A stretch of DNA of 64,000 nucleotides. Origin: Aureimonas jatrophae (GTDB lineage Bacteria; Pseudomonadota; Alphaproteobacteria; Rhizobiales; Rhizobiaceae). Within the stretch, counting starts at the first letter, position 1. Each line of letters opens with the position of its first letter. Both the position numbers and the translations under genes were made by a program. Location: the NCBI RefSeq assembly GCF_900104035.1, contig NZ_FNIT01000006.1, positions 62,001 through 126,000 on the forward strand. Direction: 5' to 3'. Of this stretch, positions 10,086-61,896 are shown in pieces. The notes beneath the pieces are model-generated. The model made no database searches. It was given only the letters and a program-made list of their open reading frames with translations, and was not told the DNA's origin.

Positions 10086-10693
10086 GGCCAGATGAGTCCG
10101 TGGTTGAGGACGGGCGCGCGATCCTGCTGGACCGGACGCAGGCGCATCTACCGAAACGTTCGGGCGACACAAGAGGAGGTGCCTTACCTTCCGGCAATTT
10201 AATCCGACGCGGACCACCGCGTGCAGACCGCAGACTGTACCGACTCCATATCCGGACGTCAGCGTGCGTCGTCACGACAAGGCTGACCCGGGAGACGGGA
10301 TGAAACGGGTTTGGGTCGTCGGGAGCGACCCGGCCGTCGCGACATCCCGGCTCTCGTTTCATCGTTGTCGCTCGAATCTAACCCTATGGCCTGCGCTCGA
10401 TCGGGATAGGTCATTCGCCAAGGCAACCTACGACGAACGACCCATCCCGTTAGGGAACGTGCTGGGATGGGTGTCTGCTTTGGCACATTCGATGCCGCCC
10501 GGCCGAACGTCCGTTTAGACGTCGTGCTCCGCTTGGCGCGCCGGAAGCGATCCTGACCGCCCGTACCGGACCGAAACGACGGGGCGGACGTGGCGCTCCT
10601 CATTATATCGCCGACCGCAGGGTTAGGCATGTGCGGCGACCGTGTCAGTTTCCCACGGCTCAGAGGCGGGGTTTCCTGACAATGCCTACAGGA
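10086..10693. other. Chromosomal intergenic flank left of the transposon
   Basis: No convincing gene: the open frames here lack ribosome sites and family-like sequence. Two hairpins stand out: ACCCATCCC/GGGATGGGT (10440-10472, 9-bp stem) and CCGAA/TTCGG (near 10149). The stretch should contain the promoter of mprF, reading left. I found no tRNA cloverleaf and no glmS-like end that could serve as a classical Tn7 attachment site. Confidence 0.5.
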
Positions 10694-10816
10694 TGTGCGT
10701 CGTCACGGAACCCTGACTCGAATTCAGGCGATCTGCGGCTCGTTGGTCAGAGAACTCCGACTCGAAAATCGTGGAAGTCCGACTCTGCGACAACCCTCGT
10801 CGCGATAGTCCGACTC
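10694..10816 (+). repeat. Transposon left end with four TnsB-type repeats
   Basis: Terminal repeat 10694-10719, followed by further copies of the inner core: CTGACTC ending 10719, TCCGACTC ending 10763, 10785 and 10816. The spacings are 44, 22 and 31 bp. Spaced sites at one end and close-packed sites at the other is how Tn7 tells left from right (family knowledge). The target copy CAGGA occupies 10689-10693. Confidence 0.85.
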
Positions 10817-11259: not shown

Positions 11260-11392
11260 CGTAGGCCAAAGGTCACCTGCGATGGGCGTCTTCGACGATC
11301 CACTAGGCACAGGAGCGTCCCAGGTCCGATCAGAATGGTGCCGTTAGTCTTTGTGCGCTACGTTCATGTTTTGATCTCAAGGGGCCTGTCGA

Positions 11393-12724
11393 ATGAAGAC
11401 CGTGACCGATAACCAGATCAACGGTGAATTCGGCGAGTCGATGGTTCGGACAAGGGTTCTGTCGATGGGGCAGGTCTTCGAACAGAATGGCCGCCTGGAG
11501 ACGGGGATCGACGGGATGATCCATCTGCGCGATCCGAAGACCGGGATGGCGCTCGGCAAGATGATCGGCGTTCAAGTCAAAACGACGACGGCAGGAACCT
11601 ACTCCGGTGAAACGGAACATGGCTTCGACTATCTGCTGAAGTCCGACGATCTGGCGTTCTGGAGAACGACGAACGTCCCGGTCATCATCGTTCTGCTGCG
11701 TCGGGCGGACGAAAGCTTCTTCTGGAAGAGCGTGGACGCGGGCGTAGCCGGGGAGGAGCGTCGGCTTCGGTTCGACAAGAAGCAGGATCTCTTCGACAGG
11801 TCCGCGGTCGACCGGATCGCCCAACTGTCGATCGATCGTTCCACGCACGGAGCGCATCTGCCCCCGCTACAGTCCGGCGAGGAAGCCCATCTGAACCTCG
11901 TCGAGGTTTTGCCCCCATCCGAGATCTTCGTCGCAACCTCTCCGTTTAGGGACGCCCGAGCTGCCATCGCCGAGATGCTTCGTCACGACGATCGCGACTT
12001 CGACTGGGTCCTTCGTGGCGGGCGTTTTCTTTCGTTCCGTGATCCTAGGACCAATGCCGCAGCATGTATCGTTGACGATGAAAGCGTCGAGGCCGTGGAG
12101 ACGTCCATCATCGCCGACAGCGACGATCGGGACGACGAGATCGCTTTCATTGAGCTTCTCAGGCGGACAATGGGACGCCAGCTCGAACCGGACATCGGTT
12201 TCGACAAGGACGGACGCAGCTACTACTTCCGTGCTCCCGAACGTCGGAAGGGCCGTTCCTACGCTTACACGGCGACGAGAAATCAGGCCAAGGCCGACGT
12301 CGTCAAAGTGTACATGGACAAGAAGGATAAGACGCGGATCAGCAGCGTCCGACATCACGCGTTCGTCCCACGCTTCCTGCCGATCGATGGACGCTGGTTC
12401 GCGTCGATCAGTCCGACCTTCGTCTTCACCGAGGATGGTTCGAGGACCCATAGGTTCTCTTCGACCCTGCTGACCGGAAAGAAGAAGCTCGAACGCAACG
12501 ACGCGATCCGCGGGCAATTCGTCATGTGGCGTCACCTTCTGATGGAAAGTGGAAAGCCGACGGCACCTAGCCTCTTCGGGATGGGAGGTGAGATTGAGCC
12601 TGGAAGACTGAGGTTCGCTCCCGTGCGCTCGATAGAGATGGAGAGGTCGGTTCCCGAGGAGTCATGGAAGGTCCAGGACCCCAACGCGGATAGACTGAAG
12701 GCGAACGAGCCGGGGCTGTTCTGA
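11393..12724 (+). CDS. DUF4365 nuclease-APAZ protein of a short-Argonaute (SPARDA-type) system
   Basis: A 443-residue protein. Residues ~1-150 form a DUF4365/DREN PD-(D/E)xK-like nuclease: acidic residues E12/E15, D40 and the motif QVK at 61-63 in MIGVQVKTTT. The rest fits an APAZ-like region that pairs with a short Argonaute. In characterised SPARDA systems, guide-directed target recognition by the Argonaute unleashes non-specific DNase/RNase activity of this partner, killing or arresting the cell (family knowledge). A ribosome site AAGGGG precedes ATG 11393. The stop overlaps the Argonaute start, so the two are co-translated. Confidence 0.82.
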   Translation: MKTVTDNQINGEFGESMVRTRVLSMGQVFEQNGRLETGIDGMIHLRDPKTGMALGKMIGVQVKTTTAGTYSGETEHGFDYLLKSDDLAFWRTTNVPVIIVLLRRADESFFWKSVDAGVAGEERRLRFDKKQDLFDRSAVDRIAQLSIDRSTHGAHLPPLQSGEEAHLNLVEVLPPSEIFVATSPFRDARAAIAEMLRHDDRDFDWVLRGGRFLSFRDPRTNAAACIVDDESVEAVETSIIADSDDRDDEIAFIELLRRTMGRQLEPDIGFDKDGRSYYFRAPERRKGRSYAYTATRNQAKADVVKVYMDKKDKTRISSVRHHAFVPRFLPIDGRWFASISPTFVFTEDGSRTHRFSSTLLTGKKKLERNDAIRGQFVMWRHLLMESGKPTAPSLFGMGGEIEPGRLRFAPVRSIEMERSVPEESWKVQDPNADRLKANEPGLF

Positions 12725-14172
12725 TGGACTTCCGCTCGAAGGTACTTGAAGAACCCCTGCTCGAGTTCGGCGACAAGCAGACTTCCGTCGATCCACGCTA
12801 CGGACTGACTGAGTTCGGTCCCCTGCAACCTGCTTTGGGTGACAGAGTACGAATTGGGGTCATAGGCACTGCGGAGACGATGGATGGTTTCTCCTCCTTC
12901 CTCGAACGTGCCATGGCCGGCATCCCGAACGATAGCCGCTACGTCAATCTCAATCCGAGCTTTCCAGGACTGGGGAATCGGAACCCATTCCGGTGCTCGT
13001 TCGAGGTGGACAGGGAAGGGTCAAGAGTACTTCCGAACCGCGACATCAAAACCGTTCTCGCGGTGCCACGCCACGACGATGCGGTCAGATCTGCGGTCGA
13101 TGTCTTCATCGACCAAGCCCGTTCACTGCTCGAGGGATCGAGTCGACCGGACGTCATCGTCCTCGCTCTACCGAAGCAACTCATCGAGAAGGTCGTCAAC
13201 GCGAGATCGGCCGACGAGGATGAGGGTGACGATAAGGACGAGCCGGCTGCGACATCCCTCGTCGACTTCAGGGACCTCTTCAAGGCACGCGCACTGTCTC
13301 TCAACGTTCCGACGCAGATCGTCTGGCCGACGCTATGGGACGACCATGCGACCATAGGACGGAAGTTCAGAGGCACGAGGACCGTGCAGGCACCATCGGT
13401 ACGAGCCTGGAACCTCCTGAACGCGCTGTTCTACAAAGCCGGCAAGGCTCCTTGGCGGCTCCCCGTCAAGGACGACGAGTATCGGACGAGCTATCTTGGC
13501 ATCGGCTTCTATCGTGACCTCGATGGGCAGCGACTCTGGACCAGCACGGCCCAGATGTTCGACGAACGTGGGAAGGGAATCATCCTACGCGGAGCGCGAG
13601 CCCATACGGACCGACCCGGCAACCACCCCTATCTCACTCGTGAGGACGCATACGCCTTGCTCCGCAAATCGGCTGATGCCTACCGGATGCAGCATCGGCA
13701 CTATCCAGCGAGAGTCGTCGTCCTGAAGACGTCGCGCTTCGAGACGAGCGAAGTCGACGGCTTCGAAGCGGCGCTCGACGAGGTAGGCGTCGATATCTCA
13801 GATATGGTCTGGGTGCAGGAGTCGACGCCGTTGGCCCTTATGCGGGAAGGGGACTATCCGGCTCTTCGAGGGAGCTTCGTCGATCTTGGACGAAGCGCCA
13901 TCCTCTATAGTCGTGGAAGCGTTCCCTACTACGGCACCTATCCTGGCGCACGGGTTCCCCGCCCGTTGGAGCTACGTCCAGCCCCTGGAGGTGACACGCC
14001 GTTGGCGCAGATCGCCGAGGAGATCCTGGCGTTGACCAAGATGAACTGGAACTCGACCCAGTTCGACCAAGCTTTGCCGATACCCATCCGGGCGGCACGA
14101 CAGGTGGGTCGGATCCTCAAACACGTCAGCTACGGGGACAGAGACCAGAGCGATTATCGCTACTACATCTGA
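12724..14172 (+). CDS. Short prokaryotic Argonaute (MID-PIWI), catalytically inactive
   Basis: 482 residues, the size of short pAgos lacking N and PAZ domains. The MID-like part includes RPDVIVLALPKQLIEKV. The PIWI C-terminus has KMNWNSTQFDQALPIPIRAA, a hallmark of Argonautes. Where active PIWI domains have the first catalytic Asp (GID), this one reads GIGFYRD, so slicing is not expected. It starts at ATG 12724 inside the stop of the nuclease partner (TGATG). It forms the guide-binding sensor half of the defence pair. It runs towards a TnsD-like gene on the other strand. Confidence 0.87.
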   Translation: MDFRSKVLEEPLLEFGDKQTSVDPRYGLTEFGPLQPALGDRVRIGVIGTAETMDGFSSFLERAMAGIPNDSRYVNLNPSFPGLGNRNPFRCSFEVDREGSRVLPNRDIKTVLAVPRHDDAVRSAVDVFIDQARSLLEGSSRPDVIVLALPKQLIEKVVNARSADEDEGDDKDEPAATSLVDFRDLFKARALSLNVPTQIVWPTLWDDHATIGRKFRGTRTVQAPSVRAWNLLNALFYKAGKAPWRLPVKDDEYRTSYLGIGFYRDLDGQRLWTSTAQMFDERGKGIILRGARAHTDRPGNHPYLTREDAYALLRKSADAYRMQHRHYPARVVVLKTSRFETSEVDGFEAALDEVGVDISDMVWVQESTPLALMREGDYPALRGSFVDLGRSAILYSRGSVPYYGTYPGARVPRPLELRPAPGGDTPLAQIAEEILALTKMNWNSTQFDQALPIPIRAARQVGRILKHVSYGDRDQSDYRYYI

Positions 14173-14254
14173 TCTGTTCCGGCGTCGGCAACGGGTGTCT
14201 CGAAGTAGGACATACCCAAAGGGCTCCATTCGGAGTAAACGGGCACGAATTCGG

Positions 14255-16183
14255 CTAGACTAACGCTTGTTCACGGGCTTTCTGCCGTAGTTGCGCTCTG
14301 CTGCGCTCGCTCCTGAACGCGTCCTTCTCGAGCGCTTCGACCTCGGCCCGCCGATAGAACGAGGAGGCGCGTCCGATTCTCGGCGAGGGCCGGATCGGGA
14401 CGGCGACCGCCAGCCCTGCCTCGCCCAGCTTCCTCCCGACCACGCGGACGTGGCACCCGAGGTGGTCCGCGGCCTCCGCCATCGAGACGTAGTCGCGATC
14501 GAAGGCGTCCAGGTCCGCGTCGCGGATGCATTCCGGACGTCGTCCTTCGAGCACGCCGGCCCTGACCTCGCTCCGGAGCACGCCTGTGTCGACGAGTTCC
14601 CGCAGAACGTAGATCGTCGTCCGGAGACGCTTCATTGCCACCATGATCGGCGACCATTCGCCCATGTCCCGGTCGAGAAGGCGGCGCATCTCTCGGACGT
14701 CGACGAGGACGCTCGGCCATGGCTTCGCGTTCGCGAGCACGCCGCGGCAGGCGAGTGTGCCGTCCAGGAGGGCCGCGACGATGCGATCGATCGAGGCTTG
14801 TCCGACCGCGCTGGCGCCGACCAGGGAGACGCACCCGTCGGGCACGTCGTCGACCACGGGCGCATCGCGACGGAGCCGGCCTATCCACGCGTCGAGTTCG
14901 CTTCGGCGGTAGAGATGGATCCCGCCCTCCTGCTCGCCGGGCACGAGCCACGGCGTCAGCGTGTTCGACGCCATGAGCGGTCGAAGCGTCCCCCGCGGGA
15001 TCCCGTAGATCTCCAGCAACTCGATCTGGTTGATGGAGTCCCGGATGGCGGCGAGGGCCTCCTTCGCCCGCGGCGCGGGCACGAAGATCCTCCAGACGTC
15101 GCGCTGCGCGTTCTGTTCGTCCAGGATCCCCAGGCGGACGAGGACCTGGATCACCCGCTCCCGGCTCGTCCTGGCGGCGGTGTGGATATGGGCCGGGGTG
15201 TAGATCGCCCGCTCCCCGATCAGTCGGCCGAAGAACTCCTCCTTCGGGTTCACCGGGAACGATGCGAGCGCGTGGTCTCGGATCATGGCACGGACCCGGT
15301 CGTAGACAGGGCCGGACTGGGTCGCCTTCCTCTCGTGGTTCAGCCACGTGTAGAGCGCGCCATAGACGACGTTGGGCCCCCAGTTCCCCTTCGGCGGGTC
15401 CGCCTTTTCAAGCATGCGGTCGAAGAACGCATCCGGATCGCTCAGGGCGTGGAAGCCGGCCGTCATGACGTCGTGGATGTCGACGTCCGGATCTCGTCCA
15501 TGATCACCGACGCCCAGCACCCCGACGAGACCGAACTGTCGGATCAACGCGATGGCGCGACCGAGCGGTAGTTCGTCCAGGAGGGACGAGGACGTCGGCT
15601 CCAGGAAGCCCATTCGACCCAGGAGGTATCGTTCGCAGGATACGTCGGCGACGGGGCGCGAGGGGACGTCCATGAGGCTTCCGACGCCATCGCCACCGTC
15701 CGTGGGGTCGAGGTGGAGCGGGTGGACGCGGAAGATCTGCGAGCCTTTCCGGCCGCGCTCGAGCATGACGGAATGGACCGGACAGACGCCGATCGTCCGC
15801 AGGAACCACCATTCCCGCCAGTGACCTCGCAGATGCGGATGGCTTGTGCCTGTCGCCGCATCGGCCCGCAGGCACTCGGGGCAGACGAGATGCACGCCGT
15901 TCTGGACGTTCTGCTTGAAGAGCGTCTCCCGCCCATCCGGCCCGGTCCCGAACCTCTCTCCGTCGACCCGGAACGTGTTTCGCCGCATGAGGTCCAGGTC
16001 GTAGCCGCCCGCCTCGGCGAAGTGCTCCAGGTCGCGACCACGCGTGATGGCCGTGTAGTCCAGTCCGTAGTCGTTGCAGAACTCGCGGGCGCTCGGCACG
16101 GCGCATAGGCGGGCAAGCCGATGGAGGATGCTCCAGGCCGGCTCGTCGGGCCATTGTTCGACTCGGATGGGTATGCGCGTCAC
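14255..16183 (-). CDS. tniQ: TniQ/TnsD-like transposition target-site selector (long form)
   Basis: A 642-residue protein with a TniQ N-terminal domain: PDEPAWSILHRLARL, then CPEC (101-104) and CPVH (134-137) zinc ligands. The long C-terminal part contains several helix-turn-helix-like segments (e.g. SMAEAADHLGCHVRVVGRKL). In Tn7, TnsD recruits TnsC and TnsB to a specific chromosomal site (family knowledge). This long copy near the left end, far from tnsABC, is a candidate site-specific selector, whereas the short tniQ at 61 kb is operonic. It converges on the Argonaute gene (82 bp between stops). Confidence 0.85.
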   Translation of the reverse strand: MTRIPIRVEQWPDEPAWSILHRLARLCAVPSAREFCNDYGLDYTAITRGRDLEHFAEAGGYDLDLMRRNTFRVDGERFGTGPDGRETLFKQNVQNGVHLVCPECLRADAATGTSHPHLRGHWREWWFLRTIGVCPVHSVMLERGRKGSQIFRVHPLHLDPTDGGDGVGSLMDVPSRPVADVSCERYLLGRMGFLEPTSSSLLDELPLGRAIALIRQFGLVGVLGVGDHGRDPDVDIHDVMTAGFHALSDPDAFFDRMLEKADPPKGNWGPNVVYGALYTWLNHERKATQSGPVYDRVRAMIRDHALASFPVNPKEEFFGRLIGERAIYTPAHIHTAARTSRERVIQVLVRLGILDEQNAQRDVWRIFVPAPRAKEALAAIRDSINQIELLEIYGIPRGTLRPLMASNTLTPWLVPGEQEGGIHLYRRSELDAWIGRLRRDAPVVDDVPDGCVSLVGASAVGQASIDRIVAALLDGTLACRGVLANAKPWPSVLVDVREMRRLLDRDMGEWSPIMVAMKRLRTTIYVLRELVDTGVLRSEVRAGVLEGRRPECIRDADLDAFDRDYVSMAEAADHLGCHVRVVGRKLGEAGLAVAVPIRPSPRIGRASSFYRRAEVEALEKDAFRSERSRAQLRQKAREQALV

Positions 16184-17215: not shown

Positions 17216-18373
17216 TCAGCTCAACTCGCGCATCTCCGCCGACCCGCCTTGCGCATGAAGGCGATGGCGTAGCCAGGCGACCTCGACGAGCGCCGAACGG
17301 TAGGGGCATACGAGCGTCCAGCACTTGCCCGCACCACCGACGCCATGGTTCCAGCGGTAACCTCTGACCTTCAGGTCGTCCCTGATCGCATACGTCGGCC
17401 CGGTCGCCACGACCTCGACGCGACGCTCGTCGATCCGGTGACGGATCTGCGCGAAGGGGGGATCCTCCGTCATTAGCCAGCGACCGGCCGAGAGGGCCAC
17501 GACGAGGGCCTCGCAACCTTCCCTGGGCGTCTCCACGTCGGCGAACAGCCCGAAGCGTGCCAGGATGGACGCCAGACCGTCCCCGTCCACGCCCAGACGC
17601 CGCCAGTCGACGGCCTCCCGGGTGCGGGCCCAGGGGAGAGCGCGGAGAAGCGGGAAGCGCGATCGCAGGGCCTCCGGTAGGGAGCCGCCGTCGTGCGACA
17701 CGCAGAGGTGGATGCGTCCCGCGAACGCATCGAAGGCTCCCGCCTCCAGTGTGCCTGTCGCCGCCGGCCTTACCGATCCGGAGAAGGCGAGGCTGCCCTG
17801 CGACTGCCCGTCCAGGACGGCGACGACGTCCCTCAGACCGGCATCGTCGTAGCTCGCGAGGACGACCGACGCGTTGTCCAGTTGCGATCCGCGCCGTCTG
17901 GGGACGCCCGGTCTCGAATGAGCGACCAGGACCAGTCGGTCGTCGGGGCCGAGGGGGCGCGGCTCCACGGACCGGGATGGAAGCCGTCGCATGACGCGGT
18001 ACCGGCCGGACGCCTCCAGGCGACGGGCTGTCGTCTCGAGTTCGTCGCCACGACCGGCCGGGTGGCGCCTGCGCGGAAACGGAACGACGTCGCATCGTAC
18101 CGCCCGGATCGCTCGGTCGGCGATGCCGAGAGGGGCTCGCCCTCTTGGTCGCGGGACAGGGAGATTCATCGTGCGGCGGTCCGGGCCAGGAGGCGTTCCA
18201 CACCGTGAGGCGATGCCGCCTTCGGGGCAGGCCTGCCGAACCTCGTCGCCTGCGGTAACGTCGCCTCGACCGGCGACCGGACCGCTCGGCGTCTCTTTGT
18301 TCTCCGGTTCGTTCGACACTGCGCCCATACCGGGGCCGGAGGTCGATCTGGACTTCGACTTCGATCCGCTCAT
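17216..18373 (-). CDS. Uncharacterised protein coupled to FtsH-like protease
   Basis: 385 residues, family not recognised. The Arg/Pro/Ser/Gly-rich N-terminus (~1-100) looks disordered. The central part (~150-290) is mixed alpha/beta in character, with LVLVAHSRPG. The C-terminus has AIRDDLKVRGYRWNHGVGG.GKCW, resembling the 'LKxRGYRW...W' tail seen at the end of some DnaQ-type exonucleases, but I see no exonuclease DEDD motifs. The ATG at 18373 overlaps the stop of the AAA+/M41 gene, so the two are co-translated and probably act together. It is the last gene of a four-gene operon. Confidence 0.7.
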   Translation of the reverse strand: MSGSKSKSRSTSGPGMGAVSNEPENKETPSGPVAGRGDVTAGDEVRQACPEGGIASRCGTPPGPDRRTMNLPVPRPRGRAPLGIADRAIRAVRCDVVPFPRRRHPAGRGDELETTARRLEASGRYRVMRRLPSRSVEPRPLGPDDRLVLVAHSRPGVPRRRGSQLDNASVVLASYDDAGLRDVVAVLDGQSQGSLAFSGSVRPAATGTLEAGAFDAFAGRIHLCVSHDGGSLPEALRSRFPLLRALPWARTREAVDWRRLGVDGDGLASILARFGLFADVETPREGCEALVVALSAGRWLMTEDPPFAQIRHRIDERRVEVVATGPTYAIRDDLKVRGYRWNHGVGGAGKCWTLVCPYRSALVEVAWLRHRLHAQGGSAEMRELS

Positions 18374-20316
18374 CGGGCCACGCCCTCCGACGGTGCCTGG
18401 GCAACTGCGCCGAGGAGGTCGTGACGGGCGGCGAACTTCGTGATCCTGTCCTTGTTCATGTATCCCGAAGACATCAGGAGTTCGGCCAGCGCGGTGACGG
18501 CGGACTGGTGGCGGACCATCAGGGCGAGGGCATCGGAGTATGCGCGCCTGAGGATCGCCTCGACCGCGTTCTGCTCCGGTCGAGGACGGAAGACGAGCGA
18601 GGCCCCGAAGGCGTAGGCGCCTTCGAAGTCCGTGGCCAGACGCGTCGCGTTGGCAAGGTCGGAGTCGTCGTGACCCCCGGCTCCCGCCGACACGGATCCG
18701 ATAACGATCTCCTCGGCGGCCCGTCCCGAGAGAGTGACGAGGATCTCGCGTCGGACGGTGTCCGCCGAGATCTCCGTGACCGGGACGGGGTCGAAGCGGA
18801 CGGCGCCGCCCCCCGTGATCGAATCGACGAGGCTGACCGCGTACGGGACGACGCCCGACGCCAGCGCCGCGACGACGTGCCCGGCCTCGTGGATGGCGAT
18901 CACGCGACGCACCTCCTGCGACCTGGTGTCGGGCGGGAGGATCGCCGCCTGGACGTCGGCGACGCGGACCGCCCTTCCGGCCTGGCGCGCCGTCCGCCTA
19001 GCCTCCCTCGCGACCTGGACCATGTCGGCGCCGGTGGCCCTTCCCGCGACCGCGTCGCAGAACGGACGCACGCTCTCGGGCGAGACCGCGCCGTCGAGCT
19101 TCGAGGCGAGGATGCGCGACAGGTCGGTGGCGTCGGGCAGGTCGATCCGGACGGTCCGGTTGAGCCGCCCGGCCCGCGTCAGGGCCGGGTCGAGACGGTC
19201 GCCCCGGTTACAGGCCGCCATGACCGCGACACCGTCACGGCCCGACAGCCCGTCGATCTCCTCGAGCAGGGCGTTGATCACGGCGAAGTACCACGACCTG
19301 TTCCGGCCTTCCGATCCCCGGACCGGAAGCGAGTCGATCTCGTCGACGAAGAGGATGGAGGGTGCCACGGAACGGGCATGCGAGAAGTCGTTGTGGATCG
19401 CCCGGAGCACGTCGCCCAGGTGACCTTCCTCCGACCTCTGCCACGTCGAGTAGGACGTGGCGACGATCGGAATGCCAGCGGCCTGTGCCACCCTTCGGGC
19501 GAACTCGGTCTTGCCCGTGCCAGGAGGTCCGGTGAGGACGAGCGTCGAGTCGACCTCGCGCCAGGGCAACGCTCCGGACCGGAAGGCAGCGAGGTCCTCG
19601 ACGAACCGCCGGGCCCAGACCTTCGCCACACCGTACCCGACCATGTCGGCCAGCGGATCCGAGAGGGCCGCGTAGTCGGACGGACCGACGGCTCCCGTGT
19701 CTGCGATGTCATTCAGGAAGGCGAGGGCGGTCTCGACGGTCGTCGCCTTCTTGCAGACGAGATCGAGCATCGAGAGCGGCGCTCCGGTAGGCCAGGACCA
19801 GCCCGGGTCGAGTTTCGCCTCTTCGCCGAACACGTGACGCAGCGTCGCTGCCACGTCGGGTCCGGTCAGACGGGTCAGATCGACTTGGGCATCGAAGAGC
19901 GGGGCTGGATCCGGCCCCGTCACCTCGTCCAACACCACGACGATCTCGTTGATTGCGACCTGGCTGCCGAGGAACTCTAGATCGAGACGCCGGACCAGAT
20001 CCCTGTCCACCGGGCTGGCGGCGGCGCTCACGAAGGCGACGGAGGTGCGACGGTTTCCTCCGTCGGCGATCTCGAACACGGCCTCGATCGTCGCCTCGAC
20101 GATCTTCCGGTCGGTCTTGGAGACGACGACGCGAAGGACGTGCTGCATGTCCTTTCGCGTCGTCGGATCGTACTGCCTCAGAAGGGCGTGCTCGATCGCG
20201 ACCTGCGTCGGGTCGAGATGGGCGCGCAGATGGGCGACTAGGGCCTCGCGGTCCGCCTGCGTCCGATCCGTCGAGCGGGGCTCGCCCCCGAAGTTGGTGA
20301 TGTCCGACACGCTCAC
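18370..20316 (-). CDS. Soluble FtsH-like AAA+/M41 zinc metalloprotease
   Basis: 648 residues: an N-terminal region (~1-240) without membrane helices, then an AAA+ module with Walker A GPPGTGKT (263-270), Walker B ILFVDEID (321-328) and arginine-finger segment LTRAGRLNR, then an M41 peptidase with HEAGH (476-480) and a later Asp in HDDSDL as third zinc ligand. True FtsH is membrane-anchored; this one is not, and it differs in its N-terminal domain. The start is GTG 20316 with GGAGGG just upstream, overlapping the previous stop (GTGA). It is a substrate-specific ATP-dependent protease of unknown target inside transposon cargo. Confidence 0.82.
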   Translation of the reverse strand: MSVSDITNFGGEPRSTDRTQADREALVAHLRAHLDPTQVAIEHALLRQYDPTTRKDMQHVLRVVVSKTDRKIVEATIEAVFEIADGGNRRTSVAFVSAAASPVDRDLVRRLDLEFLGSQVAINEIVVVLDEVTGPDPAPLFDAQVDLTRLTGPDVAATLRHVFGEEAKLDPGWSWPTGAPLSMLDLVCKKATTVETALAFLNDIADTGAVGPSDYAALSDPLADMVGYGVAKVWARRFVEDLAAFRSGALPWREVDSTLVLTGPPGTGKTEFARRVAQAAGIPIVATSYSTWQRSEEGHLGDVLRAIHNDFSHARSVAPSILFVDEIDSLPVRGSEGRNRSWYFAVINALLEEIDGLSGRDGVAVMAACNRGDRLDPALTRAGRLNRTVRIDLPDATDLSRILASKLDGAVSPESVRPFCDAVAGRATGADMVQVAREARRTARQAGRAVRVADVQAAILPPDTRSQEVRRVIAIHEAGHVVAALASGVVPYAVSLVDSITGGGAVRFDPVPVTEISADTVRREILVTLSGRAAEEIVIGSVSAGAGGHDDSDLANATRLATDFEGAYAFGASLVFRPRPEQNAVEAILRRAYSDALALMVRHQSAVTALAELLMSSGYMNKDRITKFAARHDLLGAVAQAPSEGVAR

Positions 20317-24729: not shown

Positions 24730-25653
24730 TCAACGTTCAGACGGCGCTGCCCGCCGTTCAAACAACGGGGTCACCAGCATGTGCGGCACGGTCAGGGCTG
24801 CAAGACCGATGAACACAACGTTCAGTGCAGGCGCCTGACCGCTAGCGAACAGAGCTGCTAGCGACGCGAACAGGATGGCGGCACCGACCAGCGTCGGCGA
24901 GCAGGCCAGGAGATACGCACGAAGGGTCGGCAGGTGAAGTGTCGCCATGCGTTCGTGCGTCTGGCCTCGGCTGTGGACGAGCGCGAAGACCAGCGCAAAG
25001 CCGACCAGCGGCGAGAAGGTCAAGAGGGCTCCCGCAATTAGCACCAGTTCCAGCGCTGATGCGCGTTCCCGGTCCCGGAGACGTAAGACGACGGCTAGCG
25101 ACGCCAAGGCCAGCACTGGCAGCGCGAGGAACGAGGCCACTCCTGCGAGCGCATCGCCTCCCGGTGATGTCGAGAGCGCCGCGAAGAGCTGCGCCAGCGC
25201 CTCGGCATGGAACAGCGCGGGAAGCGTGATCGGCATCAGGCCTCGAGCCACGCGCTCGGCCCAGCGCATTCCATCCGACACGTCGTCGATCGCGAAGTGC
25301 ACGGCGGACAAGGCCAGGAAGGCCGCTAGCGTCGCGCCGGGTGCTGCATGCCAAAGGACGAGCGTGATGGCGACGGCGCCGAGATAGAGAACGAGAAAGG
25401 CGAGAAGGCGGACGGGGTCGTCCCGCATCCGGCGTCCCGCCATGGCCGCCAGATGGTCGCTGGCCCCGTGTGGAAGACCCAGACCGAGGATCAGGATCGC
25501 AGCGAACACAAGAGGCACGGGGCCGGCGGCGATATCGGCCGCCAGTCCCAGGAGCGCGAAGCCGCCCGCCCACAGAAGGCGGCTGGAGGGCCGCCTCGAT
25601 GATGCGACGCGTCCGGATGGAAGCGTCGCGGGGGTCAGGTGAACGAGCGTCAT
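24730..25653 (-). CDS. blh: Brp/Blh-family beta-carotene 15,15'-dioxygenase
   Basis: 307 residues, all-helical membrane protein with the conserved histidine sites of Blh: LPHGASDHLAAM, SAVHFAIDD, LVHSRGQTHERM and LTVPHMLVTP. These bind the iron that cleaves beta-carotene into two retinals. It lies 20 bp behind the rhodopsin gene on the same strand, so one transcript makes opsin and chromophore. No carotenoid genes are in the window, so beta-carotene must come from elsewhere in the genome. Confidence 0.88.
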   Translation of the reverse strand: MTLVHLTPATLPSGRVASSRRPSSRLLWAGGFALLGLAADIAAGPVPLVFAAILILGLGLPHGASDHLAAMAGRRMRDDPVRLLAFLVLYLGAVAITLVLWHAAPGATLAAFLALSAVHFAIDDVSDGMRWAERVARGLMPITLPALFHAEALAQLFAALSTSPGGDALAGVASFLALPVLALASLAVVLRLRDRERASALELVLIAGALLTFSPLVGFALVFALVHSRGQTHERMATLHLPTLRAYLLACSPTLVGAAILFASLAALFASGQAPALNVVFIGLAALTVPHMLVTPLFERRAAPSER

Positions 25654-25673
25654 CGAAAATCGCGTCCCTGCCG

Positions 25674-26381
25674 TCAGGCGAGGCGACGCTCTTCGCGCTT
25701 CACGAGTTCGGGCTCTGCCTTCTTGAGACGCTCGCCAGCGGTGAAGCCGTAGACGACCTTGGCGATGATATCGAGGATCAGGATGGCCCAGACGCTGGCA
25801 GCGCCGGAGATGATGCCGAGACCCTCGGGACCGACCGCGAACACCACCGGGTAGATCAGCCAGACCACGGAGAGCTGAAGGGCGTTCTTGCGGTAGACCT
25901 CGTTGAGCGCACCGCCGTAGCTAGCCGAGCGCTCGCGCAGCGGTCCCCAGAGCATGAAGTAGACGCCCGCGAACGCCGCGCAGGACCACAAGAACCAGAC
26001 GAGGCGGGTCGAGCCGTCGAGGCTCATGGCCGACAGGAGACCCGTCAGGATCATGAGGGCGTCGAGACCGACGATAGCGACGACGTAGCCGCCCTGGCGA
26101 GGATGCTCGTGGAGCGCGAGGGCAACCAGGCTCGACAGGAGCAGAGGTGTCGTGAAGATCCAGTCGCCGTAGCGTGGCACGTAGAGGGTGACCCCGTCCC
26201 CCCGGTCCATGACGAAGGTGCCGAGATACATGGCCAGATAGGCGGTGGCCGCGATGAACGGCACCAGCGCATGGATCTGTGTGTGGTGTCGGATCGCACT
26301 GGCCTTCGAGCCGGTAACGTAGATCCCGATGGATGCGATCGACATCACGATGAAGCCGATCAAAAGGGCAGTGCTTTCCAT
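25674..26381 (-). CDS. Light-driven proton pump rhodopsin of the DTS type
   Basis: 235 residues from ATG 26381 (a TTG three codons upstream is a poorer start). Seven helices. Helix C reads RYGDWIFTTPLLLSS: D73 is the proton acceptor, T77 follows, and S84 sits where bacteriorhodopsin has its D96 donor, giving a D-T-S motif. Leu81 at the tuning position suggests green absorption. Helix G has LILDIIAKVVYGF with D204 and the retinal-binding K208. Outward proton pumping is the expected role; the missing carboxylate donor matches the DTG/DTS group of eubacterial pumps. Confidence 0.92.
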   Translation of the reverse strand: MESTALLIGFIVMSIASIGIYVTGSKASAIRHHTQIHALVPFIAATAYLAMYLGTFVMDRGDGVTLYVPRYGDWIFTTPLLLSSLVALALHEHPRQGGYVVAIVGLDALMILTGLLSAMSLDGSTRLVWFLWSCAAFAGVYFMLWGPLRERSASYGGALNEVYRKNALQLSVVWLIYPVVFAVGPEGLGIISGAASVWAILILDIIAKVVYGFTAGERLKKAEPELVKREERRLA

Positions 26382-26390
26382 ATGTCCCAA

Positions 26391-56536: not shown

Positions 56537-56826
56537 AGTATGAAGCCTGTGGATAACTGATAAACTACTTGACTGTAGCGGAACGGTCGGTTCCGCGCTT
56601 GGTTGTCGGTTCCCAACCAGAGCCGAGAGCCCGACCATTGTCATGACGATACGCCAGTCGCTTACGCGACCAGCGTCGTGATCTGACCCGTCCTCTGACG
56701 TCATGATGACTGTGCCTGGAAACGGCTCGGTCATCATGACTTCATTCGACCAGGCGTCGGGCGCAACCGAGCGGCGAAACCTTAACCGACGACCGTCCCC
56801 AATGCAGGCCGGCGAAAGGAGGCTCC
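56534..56826 (+). promoter_or_regulatory. Upstream region of tnsA with paired palindromic operators
   Basis: No gene. Two identical-type 11-bp palindromes, GTCAT-G-ATGAC (56700-56710) and GTCAT-C-ATGAC (56730-56740), have centres exactly 30 bp apart, three helix turns. A related GTCATGAC lies at 56640-56647. They sit 87-127 bp before the tnsA start, the right place for operators of the transposase operon. The ribosome site AAAGGAGG is just before ATG 56827. Confidence 0.55.
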
Positions 56827-57516
56827 ATGTCCGCAGTCAGGCCCGTCAGATCCTCGTTTCCATCCCTAGGCCGCAATGTTGTCAGTGGACGACGTCATAC
56901 GTTCACCGGGTACGTGCCGTCCGCCAAGGAGGGCAACGACTTCCGCGTGGTGGCCTACGAGAGCCTGCTGGAACGGGACTTCATCCAACTCCTGGAGGAC
57001 GACCACGATGTCGTCTCCTATGCCGATCGTTCGGAGCCGGTGGTCTGGATCGACCGGGACGGCGTCACGCGCCGTTACTATCCCGACTTCGACGTGCTGC
57101 GTCGCGACGATCTCCGGACGTGCGTGGAGGTGAAGCCGCTCGACCGGATCCTCAAGCACGACCTGCTACTCCACTACGAGCAGATCGAACGCTACGCCAT
57201 CGGGAGCGGTCGCTTCGCCAGGTTCGAGATTTGGACGGATCGCGAGATCAGGGATCCGATCCCGCTCTACAACGCCGAACTGCGCAACGTCGGTCGCCTG
57301 AACCGCGAACCGATGCCCTTCTCCGTATCGATCGTCTCGGCCCTTCGTGGTCTCGGGGGCCGGGCGACGCTCGGCGATCTCCGCGATGCGTCGGGTCTCG
57401 GACGCGACGCCTTCTGGGCCGTCGTCCGCTCGCTCGCCAGGGACGTCTTCCGTCTCGAGGAGCCGCATCGCCCGATCGACGATCGTTCGGTCGTCCGCCT
57501 GGAGGTCCGTTCTTGA
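56827..57516 (+). CDS. tnsA: TnsA endonuclease of Tn7-like transposon
   Basis: 229 residues. The nuclease core has E45/E49 in YESLLERDF, D87 in YYPDFDV and E101-x-K103 in CVEVKP: the restriction-enzyme-like active site of TnsA. A C-terminal winged-helix-like part follows (LGGRATLGDLRDASGLGRDA), where Tn7 TnsA contacts TnsC. TnsA cuts the 5' ends of the element, making transposition cut-and-paste rather than replicative. Strong AAAGGAGG site upstream; overlaps tnsB. Confidence 0.92.
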   Translation: MSAVRPVRSSFPSLGRNVVSGRRHTFTGYVPSAKEGNDFRVVAYESLLERDFIQLLEDDHDVVSYADRSEPVVWIDRDGVTRRYYPDFDVLRRDDLRTCVEVKPLDRILKHDLLLHYEQIERYAIGSGRFARFEIWTDREIRDPIPLYNAELRNVGRLNREPMPFSVSIVSALRGLGGRATLGDLRDASGLGRDAFWAVVRSLARDVFRLEEPHRPIDDRSVVRLEVRS

Positions 57517-59705
57517 GCGCGCCCCGTCTGCGCTTCGGTAAGACCGACATCGTGGTCCTGGACGGGCGCCGTCTTGAGGTCCGGCGCGACGGCGTCGACG
57601 AGGTCGAGTTCGTCAGCACCGACGCGGAGCGCGAGCGCTTCGTGCGAAGCCAGGCGGAACTGAGGAAGGCCTACTTCGAACGGCGACTGATCGTCGAGCG
57701 TGGGGCCGCCTCCAGGCTGCCCGATGGCCTCAAGGCCGCGCTGGAGAAGCCACTGGACTGCTTCTCGCCGAAGGGCCGCGCCGCCGCGATGCAGCGTCTG
57801 GACTACGTGAACCTGTGCGAGCGGATGCTCGGAGAGAAGCGCGTTCCGAGGACGCTTGAAGGGTATGCGAGGATCGGGCGCGTCGCGGCCTGGCTCCGCC
57901 GGGCCGGCGCCGCGTCGGTCGCCGGCTGTCGTCGCCGCACGCTGCCGCTCGAGCAGTTCGGTGCATCGACCATCAGGGGTTGGCACTGGCGCTGGCGCGA
58001 TGCCGGACGCTCCGTGAACGCGCTCGTTCCCCTGGACTACATGAAGGGCTGCCAGACGCCCTCGATCGACGCCACCGCCATCGCGGTCATCGAGCGTCAC
58101 GTGCGGGACGAGTGGCTGACCTCGACGAAGCCGCCGCTGACCGTCGTGCACGAGAGCATCGTCGCCGAGATCGATCTGTTCAACGCGAGCCTCGGGTCGG
58201 TCGGCGGGAAGCCGGCGACGCCGATCCCCGTGCCGAGCCTGTCGACCGTCGCACGCTGGGTGGACCAGAACGTCGACGAGTACGACGCGGTCCTGGCCCG
58301 ACTCGGACGCAAGGAGGCGGAGCGCCGGTTCCGTGGTGTCCGTCGCGCCCCTCAATCGGTCCGCCCGCTGCAGATCGTCCAGGTCGACCACACCCTGCTG
58401 GACATCATGGTAATCGACCCGACGTCGTCGACCGGCGTCTCGCGTCCGTGGCTGACCGCCGCGATCTGCGCGACCACGCGCATGCTCTACGGCTTCCACC
58501 TTGGCTTCGAGGCGCCGTCCTGGAGTTCGGTCATGGCGTGCCTGCACATGGGCGCCCTGCCGAAGGAGGAGGTGCTCGTCCGCTGGAAGCACGAGCGCTA
58601 CGACTTCCGGTCGGAATGGTCGGTGTTCGGTCTTCCCGAGGTCCTGGTGGTCGACAACGGCAAGGACTTCCAGTCGAACTCGCTGAAGGCGGCGGCCGGC
58701 CAACTCGGCTTCGAGCTTCGCTACACCCCGTCGCGTCGTCCGCACCTCAAGGGAAAGGTCGAGCGCTACTTCGGCGAGATCGCCCGCAACTTCCTCGCCT
58801 TCCTGCCGGGGCGGACCTTCGCCAACGTCAAGGAACGGGGCGACTACGACGCCGCGGCGGCGGCGCGCCTGTCGCTGCACGAGCTGACGCAGGCGTTCCT
58901 GATCTGGACGGTGGACTACTATCACAACAAGCCGCATCGCGGTCTGGCGCTGGCGTCGCCGGCGCAGCGCTGGAAGGACCTGTCCGCCTACGGCGTCCGC
59001 GTGACGCCCGACGTCTCCGACCTGACGGCGTTCATGGGACTGGTGCTCGATCGCTCGATCCGCTCGATCGGCGTCGAGTATCTGGGCCTCGTCTACCAAT
59101 CCAAGGAGCTTCAGCTCCTCCGCCGTGCTCCCGGCAAGGCCAAGCGCAAGTGGACGGTGAAGGCCGACCCGTTCGACCTGTCGGAGATCAGCGTCCTGGA
59201 CGAGGACGGCAGCCGCTGGCTGAAGGTCCCGTCGGTGGATCCCGATCTGACGGACGGTCTGGACATCCGTCAGTACAAGGAGATCCTGGACGAGGCCAAG
59301 GCGCTCGCGGAAGGCGGGTCGCGGGTCACCGTGTCCAACCTGCTGGACGCCCGTCGCATCCTGATGGAGATCGGCCGCGAGAAGGGCGTCCGGGCTGCGT
59401 CGCGCCCGACCGATGTCGACGTCCAGTGGTTCCGGACGAACATCGACCGTCCGATCGTGCGCGTCGCCGACAGCGCCGGTCGTCGTCGCCTTACGAAGGC
59501 GGACCGGCGCCGTTCCGACAATCGCGCACGCACCGCACTCCCGACCGAGGTCGTACCGGCACCGCCGGGCGAGACCGGTACCTCCGAATTGCATCACCTG
59601 TTCCCGGCACCGCGTCCCACCGAGGTCGCTCCGCCGGCCAAGGCATCCGCCGCAGGCGGGCGGCGGCCGCGAATCGACCCCAATGACCCGAAGAACTGGA
59701 AGTGA
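57513..59705 (+). CDS. tnsB: TnsB DDE transposase
   Basis: 730 residues from TTG 57513, which overlaps the tnsA stop. N-terminal helix-turn-helix domains bind the end repeats. The rve-type core has D292 (VQVDHT), D381 (VVDNGKDF) and E417 (KGKVERYFG), a D-D(35)E layout. The Mu/Tn7-type C-terminal beta-barrel and a Pro-rich tail (~residues 660-730), probably for TnsC contact, complete it. It cuts and joins the 3' ends. Confidence 0.95.
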   Translation: MSAPRLRFGKTDIVVLDGRRLEVRRDGVDEVEFVSTDAERERFVRSQAELRKAYFERRLIVERGAASRLPDGLKAALEKPLDCFSPKGRAAAMQRLDYVNLCERMLGEKRVPRTLEGYARIGRVAAWLRRAGAASVAGCRRRTLPLEQFGASTIRGWHWRWRDAGRSVNALVPLDYMKGCQTPSIDATAIAVIERHVRDEWLTSTKPPLTVVHESIVAEIDLFNASLGSVGGKPATPIPVPSLSTVARWVDQNVDEYDAVLARLGRKEAERRFRGVRRAPQSVRPLQIVQVDHTLLDIMVIDPTSSTGVSRPWLTAAICATTRMLYGFHLGFEAPSWSSVMACLHMGALPKEEVLVRWKHERYDFRSEWSVFGLPEVLVVDNGKDFQSNSLKAAAGQLGFELRYTPSRRPHLKGKVERYFGEIARNFLAFLPGRTFANVKERGDYDAAAAARLSLHELTQAFLIWTVDYYHNKPHRGLALASPAQRWKDLSAYGVRVTPDVSDLTAFMGLVLDRSIRSIGVEYLGLVYQSKELQLLRRAPGKAKRKWTVKADPFDLSEISVLDEDGSRWLKVPSVDPDLTDGLDIRQYKEILDEAKALAEGGSRVTVSNLLDARRILMEIGREKGVRAASRPTDVDVQWFRTNIDRPIVRVADSAGRRRLTKADRRRSDNRARTALPTEVVPAPPGETGTSELHHLFPAPRPTEVAPPAKASAAGGRRPRIDPNDPKNWK

Positions 59706-60823
59706 TCGTCATGGCCAAGCATGAAGCCGTATCCCCCGCTCCAATTCCCCTTCCAGAAGCACAGACCGTGCAGATCGTTTCGAGGGAGTTGGAGGAGGCT
59801 GTTGAAGACGATGACGACGATGACTTCGACGATTCCGCAGGGGACGAGTTGGATACCTCCGGTATCGATGAAGCGCACGTCGATGACGCGACCTGGCTTA
59901 CGTTCGCCGAGGCGTTCCGTAGGATGCGGAAGCGAGCGAAGGCCTCCGAACGCGAAGGCCGGGCCATCCTGCTATGTGGACCGACCGGATCGGGGAAATC
60001 GCACGTGTTGGATCGCGTGGAGAACGCCCCGACGTTCGTCCCGATCGAGACCGACATGGGCATCGTTCGAACGTTGGTACGCGTCGATGCGCCGGCTCCC
60101 TGCACGCTGAAGACGCTCGGCACGACGATCTACAGAGAACTGACCGGCGTCGATCTTCGTTCGCATATCCAGGAACACGAGATATGGAACCGGGTGCGTG
60201 CGCAGCTCGCCGCGCAGAAGGTGAAGTACCTGATGATCGACGAGCTGAACCATGTCCTGTTGGCGAAGAGCGTCATCGAGCATCGCAAGGTCGCCGAGAC
60301 CTTCAAGCGCGTGATGCAGATGAAGGACTGGAAGGTCTACCTGATCCTCGCCGGAATGCCGGAGTCCCTACCGTTCCTTCGAGGCAACGGTCAGCTCAAT
60401 CGCCGGACGAAGAAGATCGAGATCCGACCCGTCGTCGCTGGCGACGTCGGAAACGCCGCCATCGCGACCCACGTCAAGATCCTGATCGAGAAGCTCGGAA
60501 CGGCCGTCGACTTCGATCTCGCCGAAGCCGCCCCCCGCTTCCACCTGGCGAGCGGCGGATACCTGGGAAAGGTAGCCGAACTCCTCAAGAACGCTCTGGA
60601 GGTCGCCAGTGACGCAGGCGGCGATCACATCACCCTCGGCGACCTAGCGGAAGCCTATGACGACCTCTACGGAGCGAGCACGGATGATATTGGCGACGAG
60701 AAGAACCCCTTCCTCTGCACCGACCATTCCCTCGCCATGCGGATCGTCGCCGCGGACAACAGTCGCGAGACGAAGCTTAAGGGCAAGAGATCGTCCCCTC
60801 AGCGGCTCGAGGCCCAGATCTGA
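59702..60823 (+). CDS. tnsC: TnsC/TniB AAA+ ATPase
   Basis: About 371-373 residues; GTG 59702 overlaps the tnsB stop and ATG 59711 is an alternative. Acidic N-terminal stretch (EDDDDDDFDDSAGDELD), Walker A GPTGSGKS (90-97 from the ATG), Walker B KYLMIDELNHVL. TnsC links target selectors to the transposase and gives target immunity (family knowledge). Confidence 0.93.
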   Translation: MIVMAKHEAVSPAPIPLPEAQTVQIVSRELEEAVEDDDDDDFDDSAGDELDTSGIDEAHVDDATWLTFAEAFRRMRKRAKASEREGRAILLCGPTGSGKSHVLDRVENAPTFVPIETDMGIVRTLVRVDAPAPCTLKTLGTTIYRELTGVDLRSHIQEHEIWNRVRAQLAAQKVKYLMIDELNHVLLAKSVIEHRKVAETFKRVMQMKDWKVYLILAGMPESLPFLRGNGQLNRRTKKIEIRPVVAGDVGNAAIATHVKILIEKLGTAVDFDLAEAAPRFHLASGGYLGKVAELLKNALEVASDAGGDHITLGDLAEAYDDLYGASTDDIGDEKNPFLCTDHSLAMRIVAADNSRETKLKGKRSSPQRLEAQI

Positions 60824-61724
60824 CCAGTGGATTCCGACGTCGAGGAACACGGGCGAGGACGCATCGTCCTATACCCTCCGACTGACGGAGACGCATGGGT
60901 TCGGGTCCGTTCGTCGTTTCATGGGCGAGGCAGGGTTGCGGCGAGGGGACCTGTCGACCGGCACCGGGTTCGCGAGGCTTGCGCGGATCGGTCGCTGCGA
61001 TCCACGGGGTCTCTGGCGGGAGAGTGCGGTAGGGCGACGGAGCGGCGTCCAGATCGCCGGTCAGCAGCTCCACCGTTACCAGTGGTCGTCGACGGTCCGT
61101 CGCTTCTGCCCGTCGTGTTTCAGGGACGACGTGATGCGGAACCGAAGCGACCTCAGTCGACCCGTGATGTGGAGCCGGGTTTGGTGGGGAGTGACGGACA
61201 TCATGACCTGTCACGTTCATCGCCGTCTCCTGGCGTCGACATGCGGTTGTGGTCGGCCTGCGGACTGGTCTCACGGCAGCGTCGGCACCTGCCCGTGCGG
61301 GGGTTCCTATCGCGATAGGACGACCGAACGGGTCACCTCGATCGTCGATCGCTACATCGTCGGGCGGTTGGGCTTCGCCGATCCCATCCGCTCGAGTGTC
61401 CTCGACGATCTGCCGCTGTCGGACGCTCTCCGGGCGGTCGGCGTCTTTGCCGACACCGGCACGCAGCCCTCATCGAACCCGATCGCTCGGAGGAACACTG
61501 CCTTTGAAGCCTTGAGCGGTGGTGAGACGGAGATCGTGCGGCATATCGCTGGGATCGCAGCGCGCCGCGGCGAACGGCCGGGCGCGATGAGTCGATTCGG
61601 GGAAGTGCACACCTTCGCTCGCGATCTTCCGGCCAGTTCGGCGCGAACCCACCTGCTGGATCTCATGCGACGGAACGTCCAAATGAACGTCGCTGGCAGA
61701 TCGTCGCGCTCGAAGCGCGCCTGA
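60657..61724 (+). CDS. tniQ: Short TniQ protein, start uncertain
   Basis: The TniQ domain begins about 60867: DASSYTLRLTETHGFGSVRR, then FCPSCFRDD, TCHVHRRLLASTCGCG and CPCGG zinc ligands, about 290 residues in all. No ATG/GTG/TTG lies in frame between the tnsC stop (60823) and the domain. In-frame ATGs occur only inside tnsC (60657, 60684). A GTG at 60827, ideally placed, is in a different frame. So either the gene overlaps tnsC by about 140-165 bp, or a base is missing or misread near 60850. It is the last gene before the right end. Confidence 0.75.
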   Translation: MTTSTERARMILATRRTPSSAPTIPSPCGSSPRTTVARRSLRARDRPLSGSRPRSDQWIPTSRNTGEDASSYTLRLTETHGFGSVRRFMGEAGLRRGDLSTGTGFARLARIGRCDPRGLWRESAVGRRSGVQIAGQQLHRYQWSSTVRRFCPSCFRDDVMRNRSDLSRPVMWSRVWWGVTDIMTCHVHRRLLASTCGCGRPADWSHGSVGTCPCGGSYRDRTTERVTSIVDRYIVGRLGFADPIRSSVLDDLPLSDALRAVGVFADTGTQPSSNPIARRNTAFEALSGGETEIVRHIAGIAARRGERPGAMSRFGEVHTFARDLPASSARTHLLDLMRRNVQMNVAGRSSRSKRA

Positions 61725-61788: not shown

Positions 61789-61858
61789 GAGTCAGACTTT
61801 CGCGACGATCGAGTCAGACACCCCCCGGTTAAGAGTCAGGGTTCCATGACGACGCACA
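61789..61858 (-). repeat. Transposon right end with three 22-bp-spaced TnsB-type repeats
   Basis: GAGTCAGA at 61789 and 61811 and GAGTCAGG at 61833, with exact 22-bp spacing, then the terminal repeat out to TGACGACGCACA at 61858. The close packing at a 22-bp period is as in the Tn7 right end. Target copy CAGGA follows at 61859-61863. Confidence 0.88.
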
Positions 61859-61896
61859 CAGGACAATGCCGCCATGAGGCCTAGCATCCAACGGAT

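What the first reader, a model, noticed from the sequence alone, without database searches (positions are those of the whole stretch)
11393..16183. Short-Argonaute defence operon facing a TnsD-like target selector inside the element
The SPARDA-type pair (DUF4365 nuclease and slicer-dead short pAgo) is the first large cargo, convergent with a 642-residue TniQ/TnsD protein, 82 bp apart. The simple reading is defence cargo. A bolder one is that a guide-binding Argonaute and a TniQ protein have been brought together for guided targeting, as CRISPR effectors were in CAST elements. The intact nuclease motif favours plain defence.
Basis: partly seen in the sequence, partly recalled or inferred. Interest (0 to 1): 0.82.

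Follow-up and report, generated by a model that had tools for sequence, protein, structure and literature searches.

The report
Argonaute defence cargo in Tn7-like transposon
A known type of bacterial anti-invader system (a short Argonaute with a nuclease partner) rides as cargo in a large Tn7-like transposon, and its place beside a target-selecting gene looks like ordinary cargo turnover rather than Argonaute-guided jumping.

Summary
In detail: a DUF4365(DREN)-APAZ gene and a short pAgo face a 642-aa TniQ/TnsD-type protein, 82 bp apart. The element is real: a 51,165-bp Tn7-like transposon (10694-61858) with matched terminal repeats, a 5-bp duplication, tnsB, tnsC, a probable tnsA and a second, small tniQ at the right end. 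The pair is SPARDA by homology, nuclease residues D40/Q61/K63 conserved. Guided transposition is not supported. The closest SPARDA (93-94% identical proteins, Aureimonas AU22) shows no tns match in its 21 kb. No pAgo was found in 31 TniQ/TnsD regions fetched elsewhere. tns-type genes lie within about 10 kb of 4 of 80 SPARDA loci. The most favourable case, tnsABC-tnsD-DREN-pAgo in Pararhizobium antarcticum, loses force: a sister element (TnsB 82%, TnsC 83%) has no SPARDA in the 40 kb held. Some related elements carry other defence-type genes beside tnsD. Best reading: SPARDA is interchangeable defence cargo; TniQ-642 is a TnsD-like selector in a dual-TniQ element. No sister of the window's own element was found, so the test there is indirect.

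The parts
10689..10693 (.). left copy of 5-bp target-site duplication CAGGA
10694..10719 (+). left terminal inverted repeat; related short repeats (CTGACTC/CCGACTC) at 10713, 10757, 10779, 10810, possible TnsB sites (by eye)
11393..12724 (+). DREN (DUF4365)-APAZ nuclease subunit of SPARDA, 443 aa; D40, Q61, K63 correspond to NbaSPARDA D41, Q60, K62
12724..14172 (+). short prokaryotic Argonaute of SPARDA, 482 aa
14255..16183 (-). TniQ-642: TnsD-like target selector, TniQ core with C101/C104/C134/H137 invariant among 12 relatives, HTH_17-like stretch in the C-terminal half
17216..18373 (-). exonuclease-like protein (weak 3'-5' exonuclease match; relative L035:1701-2552 matches RNase_T)
18370..20316 (-). 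FtsH-like AAA ATPase with M41 peptidase domain
56827..57516 (+). probable tnsA (TnsA-like_N match below cut-off; similar ORFs precede tnsB in relatives)
57513..59705 (+). tnsB transposase (rve and Mu-transpos_C, both below cut-off; strong profile match to relatives' TnsB); start codon not settled
59702..60823 (+). tnsC/tniB AAA regulator
60657..61724 (+). small second TniQ; the TniQ core begins near 60.83 kb, start codon uncertain
61833..61858 (-). right terminal inverted repeat; related repeats at 61789, 61811, 61833 (22-bp spacing)
61859..61863 (.). right copy of 5-bp target-site duplication CAGGA

Best explanation
The pair at 11393-14172 is a SPARDA defence operon carried as cargo by a 51-kb Tn7-like transposon. 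Inferred from characterised SPARDA: the pAgo, bound to DREN-APAZ and a small guide RNA, recognises invading DNA, the complexes assemble, and DREN degrades nucleic acids so that the cell dies or goes dormant and plasmid or phage spread stops. The convergent TniQ-642 is a TnsD-like selector (TniQ core plus a DNA-binding C-terminal half) that would bring tnsABC to a DNA site; together with the small TniQ next to tnsC it makes a dual-TniQ element. Shown: gene identities, element ends, conserved nuclease residues, separate occurrence of SPARDA and TniQ/TnsD. Inferred: the activities, and that TniQ-642 works with the tnsABC at the other end.
For: SPARDA identity; catalytic residues invariant in 6 DREN sequences. 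Element; flanks adjacent in 3 of 20 other congeners. Independence: the nearest SPARDA (L140, Aureimonas AU22) matches the window's DNA only over 11347-14175 at 85%, i.e. the operon alone, and its 21.4 kb shows no TnsB, TnsC or TniQ match. TnsB was found in 18 and TnsC in 19 of the first 20 TniQ regions, and no pAgo or DREN in any; enlarged to 31 regions, again none. Sister test: G829 has TnsA 70%, TnsB 82%, TnsC 83%, TnsD 51% identical to the Pararhizobium element and no SPARDA in 39.8 kb, with Schlafen-type and DUF2326/ABC-3C-type genes beside tnsD. The M. aminovorans genome whose two TniQs pair with the window's two in the tree has its SPARDA on another contig. SPARDA genes have lower GC3 (0.70-0.74) than TniQ-642 (0.85).
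Against: SPARDA touches the 3' end of a tnsD-type gene or remnant in three unlike places: window (82 bp), Pararhizobium antarcticum L179 (co-directional, about 72 bp before the likely DREN start) and Aureimonas Leaf427 L215 (convergent, C-terminal remnant). The TnsD of the sister element is only 51% identical while TnsC is 83%, so a selector change together with SPARDA gain cannot be excluded. The tree pairings are weakly supported (90/74 and 91/46) with long branches. tnsC, tnsA and the small tniQ also have GC3 below 0.81, so composition is a weak argument. No activity was tested.
Confidence: 0.9

Rival explanations
1. Argonaute-guided transposition: the SPARDA pAgo has been co-opted as a guide-binding target selector that hands targets to TniQ-642 or to the small TniQ, as Cascade or Cas12k do in CAST elements.
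For: Adjacency to a tnsD-type gene in three unlike places (window, L179, L215); apparent tnsABC-tnsD-DREN-pAgo run in L179; a small TniQ without a long C-terminal extension, which Faure et al. 2023 call a hallmark of elements with additional selectors (PMC10293859 section 11).
Against: No pAgo in 31 TniQ/TnsD regions; sister of the L179 element lacks SPARDA; in L215 the TniQ core is gone from the neighbouring remnant; intact nuclease residues; TniQ-642 has its own HTH-like C-terminal half; nearest SPARDA stands alone.
Confidence: 0.02
2. TniQ-642 is a relic of an older Tn7-like element (FtsH-like, exonuclease-like, tnsABC, tnsD) whose tnsABC was lost, and it no longer selects targets for this transposon.
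For: In L035, L038 and L226 the order is FtsH-like, exonuclease-like, tnsB, tnsC, tnsD on one strand; the window has FtsH-like, exonuclease-like, TniQ-642 on one strand without tnsABC between them.
Against: The ORF is intact with its zinc-binding residues; in the tree TniQ-642 sits beside L239's separate TnsD rather than inside the FtsH-associated rows, and L239 also has a tnsABC-linked TniQ nearest to the window's small TniQ, though support is weak.
Confidence: 0.3
3. Plain chance neighbours: SPARDA and TniQ-642 arrived separately in a defence-rich region and share only the right to be carried.
For: Different base composition; operon-only DNA similarity to AU22. This differs from the best explanation only in denying that the tnsD flank is a favoured cargo place.
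Against: Three tnsD-flank cases among 81 SPARDA loci (80 plus the window) look like more than scatter, but no formal background was computed.
Confidence: 0.35

Closest known systems
SPARDA (DREN-APAZ/short pAgo), e.g. Novosphingopyxis baekryungensis NbaSPARDA (PDB 9jsb) and the 9qbp/9qbq complexes
   Same: Same two-gene operon, both proteins match along nearly their full length, catalytic D/Q/K conserved
   Different: Only its genomic place: inside a Tn7-like transposon next to tniQ/tnsD; activity untested
Tn7-like transposons with dual TniQ-TnsD (Faure et al. 2023, PMC10293859)
   Same: tnsB, tnsC, probable tnsA, a small TniQ and a large TnsD-like protein; terminal repeats and 5-bp duplication
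   Different: The two selectors lie at opposite ends of the element, some 44 kb apart; TnsB is only about 30-36% identical to the best-scoring matches seen
Tn7-like transposons with defence cargo (Benler et al. 2021, PMC8649781)
   Same: Defence genes as cargo
   Different: Cargo here is SPARDA; 'argonaute' and 'pago' do not occur in that paper's main text; its supplement was not seen
CRISPR-associated transposons (CAST)
   Same: A guide-binding effector encoded near a TniQ
   Different: No cas genes were noticed; no recurrent pAgo-TniQ pairing; effector nuclease residues intact

Membership tests
SPARDA | short pAgo (MID-PIWI) with DREN/DUF4365-APAZ partner in one operon | tested here: met
   one-base overlap
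SPARDA | DREN catalytic residues D, Q, K | tested here: met
   D40, Q61, K63 invariant in 6 sequences; correspond to D41, Q60, K62 of NbaSPARDA
SPARDA | guide-RNA/target-DNA triggered collateral nuclease activity and defence | not testable with these tools
   needs experiment
SPARDA | catalytically inactive PIWI | not tested
   stated for short pAgos in PMC12205087; residues were not mapped here
Tn7-like transposon | terminal inverted repeats with 5-bp target duplication | tested here: met
Tn7-like transposon | TnsB, TnsC and TniQ/TnsD | tested here: met
   TniB 5.5e-14, TniQ 2e-11, rve/Mu-transpos_C weak; profile matches
Tn7-like transposon | TnsA endonuclease | tested here: inconclusive
   PF08722 E 0.0094, below cut-off
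TnsD-like selector (TniQ-642) | TniQ core plus DNA-binding C-terminal extension | tested here: inconclusive
   TniQ core met; HTH_17 just below cut-off; structure prediction failed (pLDDT 34)
guide-directed transposon (CAST-like) | recurrent genetic coupling of guide-binding effector with tniQ | tested here: not met
   0 of 31 TniQ/TnsD regions; 4 of 80 SPARDA loci with tns-type genes within about 10 kb; sister element without SPARDA
guide-directed transposon (CAST-like) | physical contact of effector and TniQ | not testable with these tools
   only single chains can be folded

The most novel reading that the evidence does not exclude
A short Argonaute has been recruited as an RNA-guided target selector of a Tn7-like transposon: SPARDA's guide-loaded complex would mark DNA of incoming plasmids or phages, and the small TniQ, which lacks a long DNA-binding extension, or TniQ-642 would read that mark and bring tnsABC there. 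Three unlike tnsD-SPARDA neighbourhoods (window, Pararhizobium antarcticum, Aureimonas Leaf427) are what keeps it alive.
Probability: 0.02. Interest if true: 0.95.

Novelty: new member of a known kind. Interest (0 to 1): 0.3.

Why it matters
It adds SPARDA to the defence systems seen riding on Tn7-like transposons and gives a well-delimited example, with exact ends and a dual-TniQ set. It also shows how a tempting CAST-like pairing can be tested by comparison: sister elements that swap the neighbouring defence genes argue for cargo. If the bold reading were nevertheless true, it would be a new kind of programmable DNA insertion; the window and L179 loci are the places to test it.

Tried and rejected
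Structure of TniQ-642: predicted from a two-sequence alignment (window and L179); mean pLDDT 34.4, no residue at 70 or more, so no fold search was made. Viral contigs with the TniQ alignment: the alignment was not conserved enough. Viral contigs with the pAgo alignment: 6 relatives (22-36% identical), no TniQ, TnsB or TnsC match in them. Element ends in other loci: none accepted for L179, G140 and G602; a candidate pair in L215 (14 of 20 bases, full 5-bp duplication) was reached by 3 of 300 shuffles and overlaps what looks like an insertion sequence, so it was dropped.

Plasmids: 25 records match TniQ-642 and 99 match the pAgo; only the 15 and 25 listed rows could be compared; two records are in both lists, with the two genes about 200 kb and 320 kb apart. 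Megablast of the left 10 kb: no plasmid match. TniQ in the genomes of the SPARDA loci: 27 of 50 and 15 of 28 (L178 and L202 not held; genome G639 is in both); contigs were matched to SPARDA contigs only in part, so distances beyond 10 kb are known for few: L141 (tnsA about 13.7 kb from SPARDA) and L188 (about 40 kb). In a further contig, fetched for its pAgo, G140 C65, a 27.7%-identical pAgo lies about 32 kb from tniQ.

The tnsD neighbours sent to PADLOC and Pfam were picked by eye as defence-like from 27 tnsD ends and three further loci, so they show that other defence genes occur there, not how often. The background for tnsD-flank adjacency was not computed.
Full report
1. What is there. The first is DUF4365 and matches the DREN-APAZ chains of solved SPARDA complexes over nearly its length (9qbq_A E 6.9e-128, 9jsb_D E 4.4e-111). 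The second has no Pfam match but is a short pAgo by PADLOC and PDB sequence (9qbp_B E 2.2e-191). The third has a TniQ domain and an HTH_17-like stretch just below its cut-off; alone it matches no solved chain convincingly, but a profile of 12 relatives matches TniQ and TnsD chains weakly (best E 1.4e-4; 8glu_X TnsD E 3.6e-4).

2. The element. The same 26-base end (one free position) occurs at 10694 (+) and 61858 (-), with no other match in the window at up to 3 mismatches and none in 100 shuffles. CAGGA flanks both ends. Between them lie tnsB, tnsC and a second TniQ and a weakly matched tnsA. The unit is 51,165 bp. Congeners: the left flank gene and the right flank gene are 68, about 590 and about 455 bp apart in G596, G593 and G600; in the other 17 of 20 congeners the two flanks are on different contigs, far apart or not matched. 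So the interval is absent in three relatives; the precise pre-insertion sequence was not recovered.

3. Is SPARDA intact? D41, Q60 and K62 are the catalytic residues of NbaSPARDA (PMC12205087, passages seen). By alignment they are D40, Q61 and K63 here, invariant in six DREN sequences. Operon structure is conserved: in the five closest relatives found in the order search the DREN gene directly precedes pAgo.

4. Do pAgo and TniQ belong together? From the TniQ side: 24 of 199 genomes of the family match TniQ-642 (38 places). Twenty regions around the better places were fetched. TnsC is found in 19 and TnsB in 18 of the 20; pAgo or DREN in none. With eleven more regions (L221, L226, L230, L231, L232, L237, L239, L259, L291, L292, G829) the count is 0 of 31; for L221 a SPARDA lies 13.7 kb from tnsA, outside the region. 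Profiles of TniQ-642, TnsB and TnsC match within the held 3-21 kb of 4 of 80: L179, L195, L201, L215. L195 and L201 have short TnsB-type transposases of about 540-550 aa without an evident tnsA, Tn5053-like by recall.

5. The cases in favour. L179 (Pararhizobium antarcticum): a probable tnsA, tnsB (797 aa), tnsC (330 aa), a 723-aa TniQ/TnsD with HTH_17, then DREN and pAgo on the same strand (Pfam gave nothing for the tnsA and tnsB ORFs, which rest on profile and sister matches). L215 (Aureimonas Leaf427): pAgo, then a convergent ORF matching only TniQ-642 residues 450-625 and no TniQ domain, then an FtsH-like gene; a Drt1a reverse transcriptase lies upstream. With the window this makes three places where SPARDA abuts a tnsD-type 3' end.

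6. The tests. (a) L140, Aureimonas AU22: DREN 93% and pAgo 94% identical; DNA similarity covers window 11347-14175 only; no tns match in 21.4 kb. SPARDA moves alone. (b) G829: tnsA 70%, tnsB 82%, tnsC 83%, tnsD 51% identical to L179's; no pAgo or DREN in 39.8 kb, of which 24.8 kb lie beyond the tnsD end; Schlafen AlbA_2 and DUF2326/ABC-3C genes stand near tnsD instead. (c) In the tree of 36 TniQ cores, TniQ-642 pairs with one and the small TniQ with the other of two TniQs in L239 (Methylorubrum aminovorans), support 90/74 and 91/46, long branches. L239 has tnsABC-TniQ facing a second TnsD, no pAgo, and CBASS cyclase and phospholipase genes some kilobases away; that genome's SPARDA is on another contig (L206, 316,117 bp against 195,271 bp). 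(d) Other genes beside tnsD, picked by eye: type II methyltransferase (L044), E1-E2/JAB (L047), LmuB-like with weak scores (L037, L042), TIR (L291).

7. Mechanism. SPARDA by itself as guide-RNA-directed collateral nuclease (inferred from PMC12205087, passages). The transposon by tnsABC with a selector. Faure et al. (PMC10293859; section 11 read in full, other passages) report that in dual loci one protein is usually over 400 aa and likely binds the target directly, and that a small TniQ suggests an extra selector. Here TniQ-642 fits the first role. Whether it serves the tnsABC 40 kb away or is a relic is open: FtsH-like, exonuclease-like, tnsB, tnsC, tnsD stand in that order in L035, L038 and L226, and the window has the same order without tnsABC.

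8. Literature. Four searches gave no paper on a pAgo in a Tn7-like element among the listed titles and abstracts; Benler et al. 2021 has neither 'argonaute' nor 'pago' in its main text; the E. coli defence-island paper PMC10121019 names Argonaute only in a reference. Supplements and subscription papers were not seen, so absence from print is not shown.

9. Verdict. Observation confirmed, defence cargo supported, guided transposition unlikely (0.02). The window genome shares a genus with the genome that appears to be Aureimonas AU22 (G595 and G601 have matching hit positions), so it is probably an Aureimonas relative (inference).

Noticed in passing
window 18370-20316 (-) and relatives: FtsH-like AAA/M41 protease recurs near tnsABC: found in 9 of 31 TniQ/TnsD regions (L035, L037, L038, L041, L044, L046, L226, L291, G829), and near SPARDA in several of the 80 loci (strong matches in L184, L206, L208, L215). 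It might be a defence gene or an element-encoded remodelling protease.
   Followed up: partly
window 17216-18373 (-): Exonuclease-like partner; profile matches in 4 of 31 regions (L035, L038, L221, L226) and near SPARDA in L141, L145, L214.
   Followed up: partly
window 24730-26390 (-): Cargo holds a bacteriorhodopsin-like gene (PF01036 E 9.9e-43) beside a beta-carotene 15,15'-dioxygenase gene (PF15461 E 1.3e-37): a retinal rhodopsin module inside a Tn7-like transposon.
   Followed up: partly
window 60657-61724 (+): The small TniQ has no clear start codon: the in-frame ATG overlaps tnsC by 166 bp and a GTG just after the tnsC stop is in another frame; a frameshift or unusual start is possible.
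   Followed up: no
window 55672-56540: Broken IS4/5-type (DUF4096) insertion sequence just upstream of the tns genes (extent by eye).
   Followed up: no
G000:C9 about 40.4-46 kb (L048): A second tnsB-tnsC-TniQ(734 aa) set in the same genome; a further TnsB match on C6.
   Followed up: no
L215:3610-7335 (-): Drt1a reverse transcriptase-nitrilase gene (PADLOC, E 0) close to the SPARDA operon of Aureimonas Leaf427.
   Followed up: no
G140:C65 (L096, L097): A more distant short-pAgo relative in a long reading frame (1155 aa open) lies about 32 kb from a tnsB-tnsC-tniQ set on the same contig, with an FtsH-like gene between.
   Followed up: partly
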